A stretch of DNA of 64,000 nucleotides from Asticcacaulis machinosus (GTDB taxonomy: Bacteria > Pseudomonadota > Alphaproteobacteria > Caulobacterales > Caulobacteraceae), in assembly GCF_028550435.1 (NCBI RefSeq), contig NZ_JAQQKV010000004.1, positions 186,001 to 250,000 on the forward strand, written 5' to 3'. A model generated the notes under the pieces. It was given only the letters and a program-made list of their open reading frames with translations. It made no database searches and had not been told where the DNA came from. The translations under genes were made by a program, and so were the position numbers. This document shows positions 5,583 through 14,280 of this stretch, piece after piece (position 1 is the stretch's first letter; each line of letters opens with the position of its first letter).

Positions 5583-7235
5583 ATGGCCAGTCGGTTCAGC
5601 GTTCATCAGCTTTTGGTCGATACCGCCACCCAACTTGTGCCCAAGGTGTTCGGGGCGATCATTTTCGTGGCCGGTGTGGCCCTGCTGCTGCTGGTGCTGA
5701 CGCCGATTGATCCTGATACTTTGCCGGTGGTGCAGCGCCTGTTGCCGCTGCAACTGGTCGAAGTGTCCCACATGGCGGGCACGGCGATTGCGGTGCTGTT
5801 GATACTTGTGGCGCGGGGGTTGTGGGAGCGGGTCGATACGGCCTGGTATATGGCGATTGCACTGCTGCTGCTGGGGGCGGTGGTGTCTCTGACGCGTGAG
5901 CTGGCGGTGGTGCCGGCGGTGGTGCTGGCGGTGTGCGCCGCCCTGCTGGTGCCGTGCAAGCAGGCCTTTCGACGCAAGTCCCAGTTGCTGACGCTTAAGC
6001 TGCGGCCCCTGTGGATGGGGGCGATTGCCGTGACCCTGCTGGTGATCGGGCTGGGCGGTTTTTATGCCTATGAGCAGGTGCCCTATGCCCACAAACTGTG
6101 GGGGCAGTTTGAGTATGAGGCCTCGGCCTCGCGCTTCCTGCGGGCTCTGGTCATCATGGCGGTGACGGTGGGTGTGTTTGCGCTCTACCGCCTGTTCGGC
6201 GTGGCGCGCACCGCCCCGCCCATGCCGGATGAGGACGACCTCAGCGACCTGCATGAGGTGGTGACGGAATCGGTCAATCCGCAGGCGTGGCTGGCCCTTT
6301 TGCGCGATAAGCACATCCTGTGGAGCGATGACCGAACGGCCTTTGTCATGTACGGCATCAGCGGCAAGCAGTGGGTTGTCATGGGAGAACCCGTCGGAGA
6401 TGAAGCCCACCGCACCCAACTGTGCTGGCAGCTTAAGGACATGGCGTCTCTGGCGCGCGCCAGACTGTCCTTTTACCAGATAACGCCCGCCATGCTGCCG
6501 CTGATCATCGATCTGGGGCTTACCCCCTACAAGATCGGGGAGGAGGCGCTGGTTGATGTTCAGGCCTTTTCGACCGCGGGCAAGAAGGGTATGAACCTGC
6601 GTCAGACCCTGAAGAAATATGACGCCACGGCGACGTTTGAGATCATTGAGCCGGAACAGCTTGAGCCTGAACTGCCGCGCCTGCGCGAAGTCTCCGATAC
6701 CTGGCTGAAATCCAAGGGGGCGAAAGAAAAGAAATATTCGCTCGGCTTTTTCGATGAGGCCTATATCCGCCTGATGCCGGTGGCGGTGGTGCGCATGGAC
6801 GGTAAGATCATGGCCTTTGCTAATCTGTGGCCGACCGGCGACCGCAGTGTGCTTAGTCTCGATCTGATGCGCTATGATCCGGAAAGTCCGCATGGCATTA
6901 TGGAATATCTGTTCCTGCAACTGATCTTTTACAGCCGTGACGCGGGGTATCGCTATTTCAGCATGGGGCTGGCGCCGCTGGCCGGGCTTCAGGCCTCGCC
7001 GCTCAGTCCGGTCTGGTCCAAGCTGGGCTCGCTGATCTATACGTTCGGCGGCGAAATCTATAATTTCGAGGGGCTTCGGGCCTATAAGGAAAAATTCCGG
7101 CCGCAGTGGCAACCGCGTTACTTTGCCATAGCGGGACGAGAGACGGCTCTGGTGCCCGCTCTGATCGCCCTGGCGGCCTTAGGCATTAAGTCCGACAAAC
7201 CGCATCTGGTGAAGGGTTTGGTTAAGAGAATGTAA
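5583..7235 (+). CDS. MprF C-terminal-type (DUF2156) membrane protein, short form
   Basis: Membrane protein of 550 aa. The first 200 residues hold about five to six hydrophobic segments. The rest is a tandem GNAT-like DUF2156 domain as in the aminoacyl-phosphatidylglycerol synthase part of MprF (SDDRTAFVMYGISGKQWVVMG, then LSLDLMRYDPE, FSMGLAPLAGL and the YKEKFRPQW end motif). Full MprF is about 840 aa with a flippase module of many helices; here that module is shortened. MprF enzymes transfer Lys or Ala from tRNA to phosphatidylglycerol, lowering envelope negative charge; the amino acid used here cannot be read from sequence. I chose ATG 5583 (AGGTG six bases upstream) over an in-frame GTG at 5553 with a crowded ribosome site. 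Confidence 0.82.
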   Translation: MASRFSVHQLLVDTATQLVPKVFGAIIFVAGVALLLLVLTPIDPDTLPVVQRLLPLQLVEVSHMAGTAIAVLLILVARGLWERVDTAWYMAIALLLLGAVVSLTRELAVVPAVVLAVCAALLVPCKQAFRRKSQLLTLKLRPLWMGAIAVTLLVIGLGGFYAYEQVPYAHKLWGQFEYEASASRFLRALVIMAVTVGVFALYRLFGVARTAPPMPDEDDLSDLHEVVTESVNPQAWLALLRDKHILWSDDRTAFVMYGISGKQWVVMGEPVGDEAHRTQLCWQLKDMASLARARLSFYQITPAMLPLIIDLGLTPYKIGEEALVDVQAFSTAGKKGMNLRQTLKKYDATATFEIIEPEQLEPELPRLREVSDTWLKSKGAKEKKYSLGFFDEAYIRLMPVAVVRMDGKIMAFANLWPTGDRSVLSLDLMRYDPESPHGIMEYLFLQLIFYSRDAGYRYFSMGLAPLAGLQASPLSPVWSKLGSLIYTFGGEIYNFEGLRAYKEKFRPQWQPRYFAIAGRETALVPALIALAALGIKSDKPHLVKGLVKRM

Positions 7236-7330
7236 ATTTTGTGTGCAAAAGCCCGCCTCATCCCTATGTTTGGTGTGTCGGGTGCATTGACCAAGGCTAT
7301 CATACCGCGACATTAGGGGGATATATTCAT

Positions 7331-7476
7331 TCTTCCTTCTCCGCCCCATTTTATGGGGAGGTGCCGAGTTTACGAGGCGGAGGGGTATCTTTCGTATAAA
7401 ATACCCCTCCGTCTGGTCGCTATGCTCACAGCCACCTCCCCATCTTAGCCAGGATGGCTCGATAGGGAGGAGAAAA
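7331..7476. repeat. Double-hairpin intergenic repeat, copy A (Y-X order)
   Basis: One of five copies of a roughly 140-bp element made of two related half-modules: Y (CCCCAT..ATGGGGAGGTG .. CGGAGGGGTAT) and X (ATACCCCTCCGTC .. GCTCACAGCCACCTCCCCAT), which are near reverse complements of each other. Here the order is Y then X. It fills the gap between the MprF-like gene and mipZ, and ends about 20 bp before the mipZ start. Confidence 0.85.
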
Positions 7477-9680: not shown

Positions 9681-10322
9681 TCAGGGCGGAGCCGAATAGG
9701 TGCCGGAGTTGGGGCCGGAGCGGTTTTGGGGGCGGGCGGTTTTTTCGGCCAGTTTTTCAGCTAAGCTGCGCGGGGCACGTCCCAAGGCCCACTGGATGCC
9801 GTTGGGCCAGCAGCCGGGGCAGTGGTCATCCATGCCGCTGTTGGCATTGATCTGCGGGTCGTGGAAGTGATGCAGGCCATAGTTGGGATCGGTCTCATCA
9901 TAGGGCGTGCCGTCGGGCCAGACGCCGTGCGCCTCGGCCTGTGCCTTATGGATGCGGTCAAGGCGCGTGCCGATGATCTCGGCCATTTCGAGAAAGGCCT
10001 GCGCTTCGTGGTCGATGCGCTCAGCTTCGCTCAAACCCTCCAGATCGTCGTCATCGGTGTCGTCGCGTGAAGCGCGGCGCGAGGGGCCAGATGCGGTAGT
10101 CGTGCGCGGGGTGGGGGGCAGCTTTTCCGCTGGTTCGCCGTAAAGCTGCACCAGCATGGCGTCGCAGGCCTTGACGGCCTTATGGGCGCGCTCCGCCTCA
10201 AGGAAGCTGTCGGGCATGGGGATCATCTCGACCGCCTCCAGCAGCCGGTCAGCATAGGCGCGCAACCGCGCACGTCGCGTTTTCAGCGCGTCGGCGTCAG
10301 TGATGTCCGGGGCGGAGTCCAT
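9681..10322 (-). CDS. Conserved hypothetical protein
   Basis: Soluble, charged protein of 213 aa; family not recognised. The N-terminal 70 residues look helical (ARLRAYADRLLEAVEMIPMP). A proline/threonine/arginine-rich linker follows at about 75-100, then an acidic patch (DDTDDDDLEGLSEAERIDHE), and a C-terminal block with DDHCPGCWPNGIQWALGR, where a CPGC pair could bind metal or form a disulfide. The tail is rich in proline and serine. No signal peptide or membrane segment is evident. It is monocistronic, convergent with the astacin gene and divergent from the reverse-transcriptase locus. Confidence 0.6.
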   Translation of the reverse strand: MDSAPDITDADALKTRRARLRAYADRLLEAVEMIPMPDSFLEAERAHKAVKACDAMLVQLYGEPAEKLPPTPRTTTASGPSRRASRDDTDDDDLEGLSEAERIDHEAQAFLEMAEIIGTRLDRIHKAQAEAHGVWPDGTPYDETDPNYGLHHFHDPQINANSGMDDHCPGCWPNGIQWALGRAPRSLAEKLAEKTARPQNRSGPNSGTYSAPP

Positions 10323-10390
10323 CCGGTGATGATGGGGGATAGCGGGGGTAGGGGGGATAAATATGCAATAGGTTAAGAGTATTTCTTGAA

Positions 10391-10419
10391 TTGTTGAATG
10401 TTTATACCTACTTTATACA
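10391..10419 (+). promoter_or_regulatory. Candidate promoter of the reverse-transcriptase locus
   Basis: A TTGTTG box (10391-10396) and a TATACA box (10414-10419) are separated by 17 bases in an AT-rich stretch. Transcription would begin near 10426, about 20 bp before the first copy of the 110-bp repeat. This is a weak consensus match and no other evidence is available. Confidence 0.35.
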
Positions 10420-10447
10420 AGTCCGATTTGTATCTCACGTCGTGGCT

Positions 10448-10557
10448 ACCGTCGCCTCTTGGAAGTGGCATCCGATCCTCGCGCCAGCGTGGAAGCCGGG
10501 TGCGCGGAGATGGTTCCAGATGCTGTATCGCGAGAAGCATGCAGTTCTGAAACGTTA
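10448..10557 (+). repeat. 110-bp direct repeat, copy R1
   Basis: Identical base for base to 10793-10902, exactly 345 bp downstream (a multiple of three, so both copies are in one reading frame). It starts ACCGTCGCCTCTTGG and ends GTTCTGAAACGTTA. R1 lies upstream of the likely start codon of the small frame and is therefore probably untranslated. Confidence 0.97.
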
Positions 10558-10575
10558 TCGAAGGAGGAATGTTTC

Positions 10576-10968
10576 ATGCTTGATAAGCTTGATCAGGATC
10601 AGGCCATGAGCTTAAATGACGGAGACCAGGCGGGCGGGGAGCCTTTTCGGGTAGATATTTCCATTCGTTCCCGTTTTGTTCTTGGTGGGGGCGGCAAGCT
10701 TAGTGTTGCTATTGCGAGTAGAGTTTCATATTCTTTTATTTTCGCGGTAGTACTTCTGGGGGCGAACTTTTGGGGGCCAAATGCCGACTCAAACCGTCGC
10801 CTCTTGGAAGTGGCATCCGATCCTCGCGCCAGCGTGGAAGCCGGGTGCGCGGAGATGGTTCCAGATGCTGTATCGCGAGAAGCATGCAGTTCTGAAACGT
10901 TAGCGCTACGGAACTCCCCTCAAGGGCCGCACCTGAACTTGAGGGGGGAGAGCGCAAAAAGTGTCTGA
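10576..10968 (+). CDS. Putative small single-TM protein linked to the RT
   Basis: Predicted protein of 130 aa, not recognised. The ATG at 10576 has a near-perfect ribosome site (AAGGAGG, eight bases upstream). Residues 1-48 are hydrophilic, residues about 50-67 form one hydrophobic helix (SYSFIFAVVLLGANFW), and the C-terminal domain from about residue 74 to 109 is encoded entirely by repeat copy R2. The last 20 residues are encoded by the hairpin. The stop at 10966-10968 overlaps the RT start by 8 bp, suggesting translational coupling. The same frame is open upstream to 10390 through R1 but has no convincing start there. It could be a membrane effector or toxin of the RT system, or a fortuitous frame across a structured RNA. 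Confidence 0.45.
   Translation: MLDKLDQDQAMSLNDGDQAGGEPFRVDISIRSRFVLGGGGKLSVAIASRVSYSFIFAVVLLGANFWGPNADSNRRLLEVASDPRASVEAGCAEMVPDAVSREACSSETLALRNSPQGPHLNLRGESAKSV
10793..10902 (+). repeat. 110-bp direct repeat, copy R2
   Basis: Perfect second copy of 10448-10557. It is translated as the C-terminal part of the small TM frame and abuts the hairpin at 10903. The absence of any substitution between the copies means either recent duplication or active maintenance. Confidence 0.97.
10903..10955 (+). promoter_or_regulatory. Strong hairpin enclosing the RT ribosome-binding site
   Basis: The outer arms GCGCT (10903-10907) and AGCGC (10951-10955) and the inner arms CTCCCCTCAAG (10914-10924) and CTTGAGGGG (10938-10946) form a long stem. 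The only purine-rich ribosome site for the RT (GGGGGAG, 10944-10950) lies in its 3' arm. Folding would hide this site unless ribosomes translating the small frame open the stem. Confidence 0.7.
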
Positions 10969-12160
10969 ATATTTTAGCAAAAAATTAATCAAGGAAGTTT
11001 GGAATCATAGCAAAGATGCTAAGCGTTCGACTGCAGGGGCGCCTGGTGTTGACGGTATCTCGGCCTTAGATTTTAAAAGAAACTTGGACGAAAATATTGA
11101 TCTGATTTATCAGGAGATCAAAACAAAAACTTTTCGATTTAATCAACTGAGGTTGGTTAAGCTGCCGAAGGGTGATGACGCTTTTCGTATCATTGCAATT
11201 CCTACTGTTCGCGACAGATTAGTGCAAAGAGTCGTACTGCATTATTTTTCGAAAAGACCAAAACTAAGTCCTGCTACAGAAATCAGTTACGGAAGCATCA
11301 GTGGCAGAGGTGTAAATAATGCCCTTAAAGCAGCCGTTAAATTCAGAGATGAAGCCCCCATTGCACTGCAAACTGATATTACAAAATTTTTCGATACTAT
11401 TGATCGTTCAAAACTAAAAAAATCTATCCCTACGACCATATGTAAGTCAGTACGAGAAATCATTTTAAAGGCAATTGATTGCGAAATTAAGACTCGTGAT
11501 AGTGAGGATTCTAATATTCTCTATAAAAATGAAATTGTAACTGGAAGAGGGCTGCGTCAAGGAATGCCTCTTTCTCCATTGCTATCAAATTTCTTTCTCA
11601 AAAAATTTGATAGCTGGTTGCTAAAAAATGAAACACGCTGTGTTAGATATGTTGACGATATATGTGTGTTTAAGAATACAGAAAAAGAATGTTTGCAGTT
11701 ATTAGGGGAGATGAAAGAGAAACTTCTCAAATTAAAGCTAAATATACCTGAAATAGAAGCAGCTACAAAAACTAATATACATCATAAAACTGATGTCGTT
11801 GAATTGCTTGGGGTGGAAATTAGGTATACACAAAAAGGCTATGGAATATATCCGCAAACTAAAAAATTGCCAAAAATACAACTTGAGTTTGAAAAAATTG
11901 GCACTGTGAAATTCTGCGTGGATAACAAATATACAATGCACAGATTGATGCAGAGATTAGATTCAATGGCAGATGGTTATCGCCATTCATTGAGAAACGT
12001 AGAAGGTACAAGGGACTATCTTAATACGATTGACTCTTTTAAAGACAAGCAAAAGGCTGCGTTTTTAGTGGAGTTTTTTGGTGAGTTTCTTAACAGCTTG
12101 GACGCTTCTGGTCGTGCAATTTTAGGTTTAGATCCATTTAGTTCTACACAGAAGCGTTGA
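10961..12160 (+). CDS. Reverse transcriptase (group-II-like / defence-type, not retron or DGR)
   Basis: RNA-directed DNA polymerase of 399 aa. The N-terminal GAPGVDG (residues 26-32) and IAIPTVRDRLVQR blocks, motif A LQTDITKFFDTID (Asp139), the QGMPLSP block (Gln200-Pro206) and the catalytic YVDD (230-233) are complete. The QG...SP block argues against a DGR-type enzyme (which has SQ), and no retron-type NAxxH/VTG arrangement is visible. There is no maturase X or HNH domain, so it is not an ordinary group II intron protein. The C-terminal 120 residues are helical and unassigned. Codon use is strongly AT-rich, unlike every neighbour, which indicates horizontal acquisition. The start is GTG 10961. 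Abortive-infection or DRT-type antiviral function is the leading guess, by family only. Confidence 0.85.
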   Translation: MSEYFSKKLIKEVWNHSKDAKRSTAGAPGVDGISALDFKRNLDENIDLIYQEIKTKTFRFNQLRLVKLPKGDDAFRIIAIPTVRDRLVQRVVLHYFSKRPKLSPATEISYGSISGRGVNNALKAAVKFRDEAPIALQTDITKFFDTIDRSKLKKSIPTTICKSVREIILKAIDCEIKTRDSEDSNILYKNEIVTGRGLRQGMPLSPLLSNFFLKKFDSWLLKNETRCVRYVDDICVFKNTEKECLQLLGEMKEKLLKLKLNIPEIEAATKTNIHHKTDVVELLGVEIRYTQKGYGIYPQTKKLPKIQLEFEKIGTVKFCVDNKYTMHRLMQRLDSMADGYRHSLRNVEGTRDYLNTIDSFKDKQKAAFLVEFFGEFLNSLDASGRAILGLDPFSSTQKR

Positions 12161-12169
12161 CATGAGAAT

Positions 12170-12187
12170 GTGGGGTCGAAACCCCAC
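12170..12187 (+). terminator. Hairpin after the RT gene
   Basis: GTGGGGT and ACCCCAC arms around a CGAA loop, 10 bp after the RT stop, followed by a short T-containing stretch. A plausible but weak intrinsic terminator for the RT transcript. Confidence 0.45.
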
Positions 12188-12236
12188 ACCCCATTTGTTT
12201 AAACGCTACCCTATCCACCCACTTCAAGTTACGGGT

Positions 12237-14124
<1,888 letters not shown>

Positions 14125-14180
14125 TCATGAGCGCAGATTGCAGGTGCTTTTCGCCTGTAAAGCCAAAAAGCGTATCCAAC

Positions 14181-14280
14181 TCCCTTCGCCGGCATGACCC
14201 GGATCAGGTTCGGCGGTTTTAAAGCACAGCATTGAGTGCTTAGTCTCAGCCCGCATAAGCCTGCGGACACTCCGGTGAAC
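14181..14280 (-). promoter_or_regulatory. TPP (THI-box) riboswitch upstream of thiC
   Basis: Read on the minus strand, the leader contains the conserved GCTGAGA element and the CCTGATCCGGGT and ATGCCGGCGAAGGGA elements in the right order, with the usual variable P3 stem between them. It ends about 83 bp before the thiC start. Binding of thiamine pyrophosphate is expected to block thiC translation or transcription. Confidence 0.95.

What the first reader, a model, noticed from the sequence alone, without database searches (positions are those of the whole stretch)
10391..12187. Candidate undescribed reverse-transcriptase system
An AT-rich RT gene (YVDD, QGMPLSP, GVDG present; no retron, DGR or intron hallmarks) sits in GC-rich chromosome behind a roughly 530-nt leader with a perfect direct repeat, a possible one-TM protein and a terminal hairpin. 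The composition points to horizontal transfer, and the layout fits an RT defence unit (RNA + small membrane protein + RT) that I do not recognise as one of the named types. The motifs and repeat are read directly; the defence role is an inference from family.
Basis: partly seen in the sequence, partly recalled or inferred. Interest (0 to 1): 0.88.

Follow-up and report, generated by a model that had tools for sequence, protein, structure and literature searches.

The report
Reverse transcriptase with in-frame repeats
A small horizontally acquired bacterial gene unit pairs a reverse transcriptase with two identical DNA repeats whose spacing is kept in reading frame across dozens of species, as if the enzyme copies the unit head-to-tail into a gene without a stop that encodes a repeating, often membrane-spanning protein.

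Summary
An AT-rich reverse transcriptase (RT) gene sits behind a leader with a perfect 110-nt direct repeat (R1, R2) flanking a unit U with a small ORF. The terminal hairpin belongs to the host flank. Of 56 loci with the repeat pair (window included; 45 RT clusters at 70% identity), 50 have R1-R2 spacing divisible by three. In 49 the unit joined to itself has a stop-free frame; shuffling predicts about 1.7. Six of six further repeat-bearing loci agreed. U evolves as coding sequence, yet R1 rarely has a start site of its own. R1 and R2 evolve in concert. The RT models as a group II-intron-like enzyme, scores far below the cut-offs of named RT families, and eight literature searches showed no such layout. 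Best explanation: RNA with R at both ends is reverse-transcribed, the cDNA end transfers from R1 to R2, and (R-U)n DNA carries an endless ORF. That resembles DRT2 'neo' or a giant DRT10/telomerase A-B-A' template, but membership in either is not met. Copying, concatemer and phage defence are inferred, not shown.

The parts
10364..12169 (+). whole inserted module between a 213-aa gene and thiC
   Evidence: same-genus genome G004 matches window 10232-10363 and 12170-14204, with different cargo between; G013 matches 10262-10361 and 12170-14199
10448..10557 (+). direct repeat copy R1
   Evidence: identical to R2 over 110 nt
10558..10792 (+). unique segment U between the repeats
   Evidence: U pN/pS below 1 in 20 of 20 pairs of relatives (the window itself was not in a pair)
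10561..10567 (+). Shine-Dalgarno-like AAGGAGG
10576..10968 (+). genome-encoded small ORF (130 aa, membrane-type stretch near 10702-10767), running through R2 and overlapping the RT start
   Evidence: in this locus another frame is even more hydrophobic
10706..10734 (+). weak promoter-like TTGCTA-17-TATTCT in U, shortly before R2
   Evidence: matched or beaten by 1 of 60 shuffles here; 11 of 43 loci at p<0.1 against 4.3 expected; not listed by the stricter consensus scan
10793..10902 (+). direct repeat copy R2, in the same reading frame as R1 (spacing 345 = 3 x 115)
10961..12160 (+). reverse transcriptase, 399 aa, group II-intron-like fold
11558..11578 (+). RT motif QGMPLSP
11648..11659 (+). 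RT catalytic motif YVDD
12170..12187 (.). hairpin GTGGGGTCGAAACCCCAC, host flank, not part of the module
   Evidence: shared with relatives that lack the RT

Best explanation
This is a self-contained RT system whose template is terminally redundant RNA R1-U-R2. The RT copies R2, U and R1; the cDNA end made on R1 re-anneals to R2 and synthesis continues, as in retroviral R-region strand transfer or the A-B-A' template of DRT10/telomerase with an A of about 110 nt. The product is tandem (R-U)n, or a circle of the unit. Because the unit is divisible by three and stop-free, this DNA encodes a nearly endless protein (115 aa per unit here), usually with a membrane-type helix per repeat. A promoter near the end of U, downstream of the start codon in the genome, would then lie upstream of the next unit's start codon. 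Expression of the polymer would arrest or kill the cell, most likely in answer to phage. Shown: architecture, frame, coding selection, concerted evolution, predicted RT fold. Inferred: reverse transcription of this RNA, strand transfer, polymer expression, defence.
For: Spacing divisible by three in 50 of 56 repeat-bearing loci and 41 of 45 RT clusters (binomial 8e-16, clusters taken as independent). Endless frame in 49 of 56 against 1.7 expected, and in L054 and L058 when measured on the 5' arm. Two failures (L060, L113) have an RT frame cut to 324 and 78 aa. Six of six new repeat-bearing loci agree. Minus strand: 9 of 56. U pN/pS below 1 in 20 of 20 pairs, pooled 0.54. SD-ATG in U in 31 of 49 loci, control frames 8 of 98; SD-start before R1 in 2 and within R1 in 6 of 49: R1 is kept in frame although rarely translated from the genome by a recognisable start. 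Promoter-like signal at the end of U in 11 of 43 loci, 4.3 expected. DGR-type controls: 3 of 8 spacings divisible by three, at least 3 stops in every frame. The DRT2 authors used the same two arguments for neo (PMC12039810, passages).
Against: No cDNA or RNA data. U has its own SD-ATG before the hydrophobic stretch in 22 of the 26 loci that could be assigned (23 of 49 could not), so a membrane protein can be made from the genome without any RT. Both junctions of the concatemer already exist in the genome, so unlike DRT2 no new junction is made. The 21 codons before the ATG in Acinetobacter are conserved at the DNA level, not the protein level. No conserved RNA fold of R was found. Seven clade members hold a single R and no repeat pair, unless assemblies collapsed; three more hold only part of R and three none; two new loci have none (L191, L196). 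L086 (intact RT), L099 and L044 break the rule. The hydrophobic stretch is not universal (38 of 49) and in the window it is not frame-specific. The promoter-like site of the window is weak and absent from the stricter scan.
Confidence: 0.55

Rival explanations
1. DRT10-like operon: R1 is a structured non-coding RNA that the RT copies into short or repetitive cDNA; the small membrane protein of U is an ordinary effector controlled by that cDNA; R2 is a second RNA copy overlapping the effector's 3' end.
For: Layout RNA - membrane protein - RT matches DRT10 (ncRNA - SLATT - RT; PMC12632851, passages). UG17 is the best-scoring named DRT model and all 44 clade RTs scanned match it. U has an SD-ATG of its own. 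The pre-ATG segment is conserved at the DNA level. R1 and R2 differ at 2-3 clustered nt in many beta/gamma loci.
Against: Does not explain spacing divisible by three, a stop-free frame through R1 into U, or why two copies are kept nearly identical. No SLATT or other Pfam hit above its cut-off in 10 U proteins. Rfam found no known RNA in the module of the window or of 9 loci; its three hits there (a tRNA, a TPP riboswitch, a group I intron) lie outside the modules.
Confidence: 0.25
2. DNA-level switch: RecA recombination between R1 and R2 deletes, excises or amplifies U in frame; the RT acts elsewhere.
For: Concerted evolution of R1 and R2 (305 concerted against 5 copy-shared sites). Seven loci look like deletions to a single R; a DNA search with L089's U found none in the two such Acinetobacter genomes searched, though one of them is diverged enough that it could have been missed.
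Against: No third R copy was reported at any of the 56 loci. Single-R loci may be assembly collapse. Every locus was found through its RT, so whether R-U-R exists without an RT was not tested.
Confidence: 0.12
3. Diversity-generating retroelement or retrohoming pair: R2 is a template copied into R1.
For: Repeat length like TR/VR; near-identity could come from copying.
Against: Motif RQGMPLSP rather than the DGR type (G...SQ, recalled; seen in L118); R1/R2 mismatches are few and not adenine-specific; RT is outside the clade of loci I read as DGR-type; those lack the frame rule.
Confidence: 0.03
4. Decayed group II intron or orphan maturase beside an unrelated repeat.
For: Group II RTs are the nearest solved relatives by sequence and fold.
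Against: 159-186 bits on TIGR04416 (cut-off 300) for 4 clade members, against 376-427 for 4 group II RTs of the same searches that have intron RNA; no intron RNA at the window module or in 9 other clade loci; repeat recurs with the RT.
Confidence: 0.02

Closest known systems
DRT2 (RT + ncRNA, neo gene)
   Same: Repeat unit divisible by three, single stop-free frame across units, hydrophobic bias, SD and start codon, promoter-like site usable once units are joined.
   Different: Window RT scores 47 bits on the Drt2 model (cut-off 390); template has long direct repeats in the DNA; ORF lies on the RT-sense strand; unit 291-453 nt instead of 111-129; no known ncRNA found.
DRT10 / UG17 (ncRNA + SLATT + RT)
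   Same: RNA region, membrane-type protein, RT order; A-B-A' template logic; UG17 is the nearest named DRT model.
   Different: 140 bits on UG17, against 439 for a true UG17 and 179 for a group II intron RT; no SLATT match; repeats about 110 nt instead of 4.
Group II-intron-like RTs (GsI-IIC, G2L4)
   Same: Best fold and sequence matches over nearly full length, TM 0.66-0.72.
   Different: No intron RNA found, below family cut-off, about 21% identity, own recurrent repeat module.
Diversity-generating retroelements
   Same: RT next to about 100-nt direct repeats.
   Different: Motif, clade, mismatch pattern and frame rule all differ.
Retroviral / pararetroviral R region (recalled)
   Same: Terminal direct repeats on template RNA that would allow strand transfer.
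   Different: RT gene lies outside the repeated unit; no other retroviral gene seen next to it.

Membership tests
DRT2 | RT matches the Drt2 family model | tested here: not met
   46.9 bits, cut-off 390
DRT2 | unit length divisible by three with one stop-free frame | tested here: met
   49 of 56 loci
DRT2 | ORF on the complement of the ncRNA, promoter rebuilt only at the joined junction | tested here: not met
   frame is on the RT-sense strand (minus strand 9 of 56); both junctions already exist in R1-U-R2. Which strand is the template RNA was not tested
DRT2 | concatemeric cDNA made | not testable with these tools
   needs cDNA sequencing
DRT10/UG17 | RT is UG17 | tested here: not met
   139.6 bits against 438.8 for a true UG17; a group II intron RT reaches 178.8 and its close relative 174.6. 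In the quick tree UG17 lies next to the clade, on a weak branch
DRT10/UG17 | adjacent SLATT protein | tested here: not met
   no SLATT hit in the window ORF or 10 U proteins
DRT10/UG17 | upstream ncRNA with A-B-A' template | tested here: inconclusive
   R1-U-R2 has A-B-A' form at large scale; no conserved RNA fold found
Group II intron | intron RNA around the ORF | tested here: not met
   Rfam: none at the window module or in 9 clade loci; present in 4 control loci
Group II intron | group II RT/maturase equivalog cut-off | tested here: not met
   159 bits, cut-off 300
DGR | motif with S-Q in place of S-P (recalled) and adenine-specific TR/VR differences | tested here: not met
   RQGMPLSP/ISP/MSP in 48 of 50 clade RTs, not matched by the pattern in 2; mismatch spectrum mixed
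Retron | RT in a retron family, msr-msd RNA | tested here: not met
   70 bits on the St85 model, cut-off 235; no Rfam retron RNA; msr-msd structure not sought otherwise
Anti-phage defence system | protects against phage | not testable with these tools
   no phage assay; neighbour scan inconclusive

The most novel reading that the evidence does not exclude
A second, separately evolved kind of RT-made gene: a group II-like RT uses long terminal direct repeats to turn a one-and-a-third-unit genomic seed into an endless tandem gene for a repetitive membrane-type protein, so that the gene's working form exists only as cDNA.
Probability: 0.5. Interest if true: 0.95.

Novelty: new variant of a known kind. 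Interest (0 to 1): 0.85.

Why it matters
If true, de novo gene assembly by reverse transcription is not a peculiarity of DRT2 but has arisen in another RT lineage with a different template design, and the repeat-templating logic proposed for telomerase's origin extends to group II-like RTs. The frame rule gives a simple computational test that could find further systems. The candidate is compact (1.8 kb) and testable in one laboratory strain.

Tried and rejected
Conserved RNA fold of R: RNAalifold on A2 and A3 gave few, weak pairs; single-strand folds of 8 R copies ranged from z 0.8 to -4.5, the last in L067. Alignment A4 was made and not folded. Partner search for the 2-3 nt slot that differs between R1 and R2: no common partner. 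Simple codon-position test on diverged groups: weak position-3 excess; pair-wise pN/pS on closer relatives was clearer (its 20 pairs come from 8 groups and are not independent). Translation of the pre-ATG segment in Acinetobacter: not supported, DNA-level conservation. Promoter upstream of R1 in the window: not distinguishable from shuffles (29 of 60), though 12 of 42 loci pass p<0.1; the consensus scan listed no plus-strand promoter and no terminator in 10300-12300. First AlphaFold job on the single sequence was useless (pLDDT 34). Defence-island test: 142 neighbour ORFs, at most 3 matching any one family, no control. Phages collection: no match at 1e-30 with L072 RT; the window RT found 27 records, all under 60% identity. 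The tree is FastTree with long branches; placement outside the clade is unsure, and UG17 sits beside the clade on a weak branch.

Rows left out of counts: one search scanned 102 loci (window included); 56 are counted as repeat-bearing, 35 had no repeat, and 11 with some repeat were not counted: L126 (the same sequence as L113), L034 (unrelated 44-nt repeat), L109, and eight viral loci read as DGR-type (L118, L120, L123-L125, L127-L129). The promoter test used 43 loci after removing 7 near-copies. Near-duplicates such as L025, L074, L095, L044 and L097 stay in the 56; the 45-cluster count corrects for this. The new locus L190 (R 92.7% identical) would have fallen just under the 93% cut of the first set.
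Full report
1. What is in the window. The RT gene (10961-12160, GTG start, 399 aa) carries GVDG, RQGMPLSP and YVDD. It is AT-rich (GC 0.36) in surroundings of about 55-62% GC. Its leader holds a 110-nt perfect direct repeat at 10448-10557 (R1) and 10793-10902 (R2), 345 nt apart. Between them U carries AAGGAGG at 10561 and ATG at 10576; the ORF runs through R2 and ends at 10968, overlapping the RT start. All 25 genomes of the genus searched, the window's own included, match the thiC side. Two of the nine compared (G004, G013) also match the other side, up to 10361-10363 and from 12170, with other cargo between: in G004 two ORFs, one of which looks like a PIN-domain toxin gene (my reading, no family search), and in G013 two short ORFs. 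So the module is about 10364-12169, and the hairpin at 12170 is host sequence. Of 198 related genomes, 13 besides the window's own have any RT match, the best 32% identical over part of the protein.

2. The architecture recurs with the RT. Relatives came from plasmids, genome contigs (80 loci, capped), viral contigs (16 loci) and whole genomes. A script looked for the best direct repeat upstream of 102 RT loci: 35 had none, 11 had one that is not counted (a duplicate, an unrelated repeat in each of two loci, eight DGR-type loci), and 56, the window included, hold R1-U-R2: R 54-166 nt (the 54 is cut by a contig end), 94-100% identical, spacing 291-453 nt. A FastTree of 125 RTs places the window in a clade of 76 rows (local support 93). 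Of these 76, 50 have the pair with spacing divisible by three and 5 have it with another spacing (L054, L058, L060, L086, L099). Seven have a single R matching their relatives' R (L034, L066, L075, L077, L087, L091, L092); in all but L034 the match runs on into R1's upstream flank. Three have only part of R (L045, L055, L081), three none recognised (L027, L064, L076), one is rearranged (L028), and seven have too little sequence upstream. The 56th repeat-bearing locus, L113, has a broken RT and is not in the tree.

3. The frame rule. Spacing is divisible by three in 50 of 56 loci, and in 41 of 45 clusters at 70% RT identity (binomial 8e-16 if clusters are independent). Joined to itself, the unit has a stop-free plus-strand frame in 49 of 56 loci; dinucleotide shuffles predict 5.1, or 1.7 with the mod-3 condition. 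On the minus strand it is 9 of 56. Exceptions: L044 has one stop while its near-twin L088 has none. L054 and L058 carry a 1-nt length difference inside R; measured on the 5' arm the unit is 402 nt and stop-free. L060 and L113 have RT frames cut to 324 and 78 aa. L099 is one base shorter than its sister L080. L086 is a plain exception with an RT frame of 416 aa. Eight viral loci that I read as DGR-type (by motif in L118 and by their diverged repeats; no DGR model was run) have spacing divisible by three in 3 of 8 and at least 3 stops in every frame.

4. Test on loci not used for the discovery. A search of 249 genomes of the Acinetobacter family, and a plasmid search, gave eight loci not seen before. 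Six hold the repeat pair (L184, L189, L190, L192, L193, L195), and six of six are divisible by three with a stop-free frame; L191 and L196 have no repeat. These are kin of clade members already seen, so they are not a fully independent sample.

5. U is coding, R1 is probably not translated from the chromosome. In U, pN/pS is below 1 in 20 of 20 pairs from 8 groups, pooled 0.54, and 0.25-0.42 in the eight closest pairs. In-frame ATG with a Shine-Dalgarno-like site occurs in U in 31 of 49 loci, against 8 of 98 in the two other frames. A start with such a site lies before R1 in 2 of 49 and within R1 in 6 of 49. A membrane-type stretch (Kyte-Doolittle at least 1.6) is in the open frame of 38 of 49 loci, against 13 of 49 for the better of the other frames; in the window another frame is even more hydrophobic. 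No Pfam match above its cut-off in 10 U proteins. Against a strong reading: the start lies before the hydrophobic stretch in 22 loci and after it in only 4 (L037, L040, L059, L088), 23 being unassigned; and the pre-ATG segment in Acinetobacter is conserved as DNA, not as protein.

6. R1 and R2 evolve together. In 15 ortholog pairs (some loci used more than once), 305 columns changed in both copies of one locus, 5 were shared copy by copy and 46 were other (1,846 columns). Ordinary gene conversion can do this, so it does not by itself show copying by the RT. In many beta- and gammaproteobacterial loci the copies differ only, or mainly, at a cluster of 2-3 nt, often just after GGC. No common pairing partner was found, and this is unexplained.

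7. Promoters. Promoter-like sites are enriched upstream of R1 (12 of 42 loci at p<0.1) and in the last 110 nt of U (11 of 43), against about 4 expected; four other regions gave 4, 6, 3 and 3 of 43. In the genome the U site precedes R2 and the RT gene; in a joined product it would precede the next unit's start codon. In the window the U site is weak and a stricter scan did not list it.

8. The RT. By sequence it is nearest to group II intron RTs and G2L4 among solved structures, but it scores 159 bits on TIGR04416 (cut-off 300) and 140 on UG17, the best-scoring named DRT model, which all 44 clade RTs scanned match. A true UG17 scores 439; a group II intron RT with intron RNA beside it scores 179, and its close relative, not itself checked for intron RNA, 175. 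Group II intron RNA is found at four group II RTs from these searches and at none of 10 clade loci examined. An AlphaFold2 model with 42 rows has mean pLDDT 92; Foldseek ranks GsI-IIC and G2L4 first (TM 0.66-0.72), with DRT9 at rank 30, DGR 36 and DRT2 37.

9. Mechanism. The frame rule needs something that reads from R into U repeatedly. The genome provides only one and a third units and rarely a start before R1. An RT that transfers its cDNA end from R1 to R2 would supply the rest. The DRT2 authors argued for neo from the same two facts, unit divisible by three and no stop (PMC12039810, passages read), and DRT10 copies an A-B-A' template by re-annealing (PMC12632851, abstract, passages and section 9 read). 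This system works like a hybrid of the two but meets neither membership test. A defence role is the likeliest use, by analogy with those systems, its small size, its patchy distribution and its place in a spot with TA-like cargo in a relative; none of this is a test.

10. Prior description. Eight full-text searches listed no paper whose title or abstract start describes this layout; the library lacks most subscription journals and holds bioRxiv preprints only where they are in PubMed Central. Listed papers on DRT1, DRT3 and domesticated retroelements were not opened. Passages of PMC8934634, PMC4244168, PMC12337344 and PMC12483538 were read; the UG/Abi survey of 2022 was not held and is known to me only by recall.

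Noticed in passing
beta/gamma loci, e.g. L024 R positions 36-38, L035 59-61, L065 44-46: R1 and R2 are identical except at a cluster of 2-3 nt, often right after GGC; kept different in several species.
   Followed up: partly
L034, L066, L075, L077, L087, L091, L092: Single R joined to R2's downstream side, and in all but L034 also to R1's upstream side: loss of one R plus U, or assembly collapse.
   Followed up: partly
L028 (A. baumannii X4-300) against L026: Inner part of the RT gene appears inverted, splitting the gene.
   Followed up: no
L074: Contig filed as Heimdallarchaeota carries a near-copy of the Acinetobacter higginsii locus (L070); probably contamination.
   Followed up: no
L035 3028-3223: Group I intron match upstream of the module (Rfam RF00028).
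   Followed up: no
L027 about 6820-7350: Gene with a long array encoding RTGQD repeats next to an RT of the clade that lacks R1-U-R2.
   Followed up: no
window 10364-12169 and genomes G004, G013: Spot next to thiC holds different small cargo in related species: this RT module, a PIN-like pair, or two short ORFs.
   Followed up: partly
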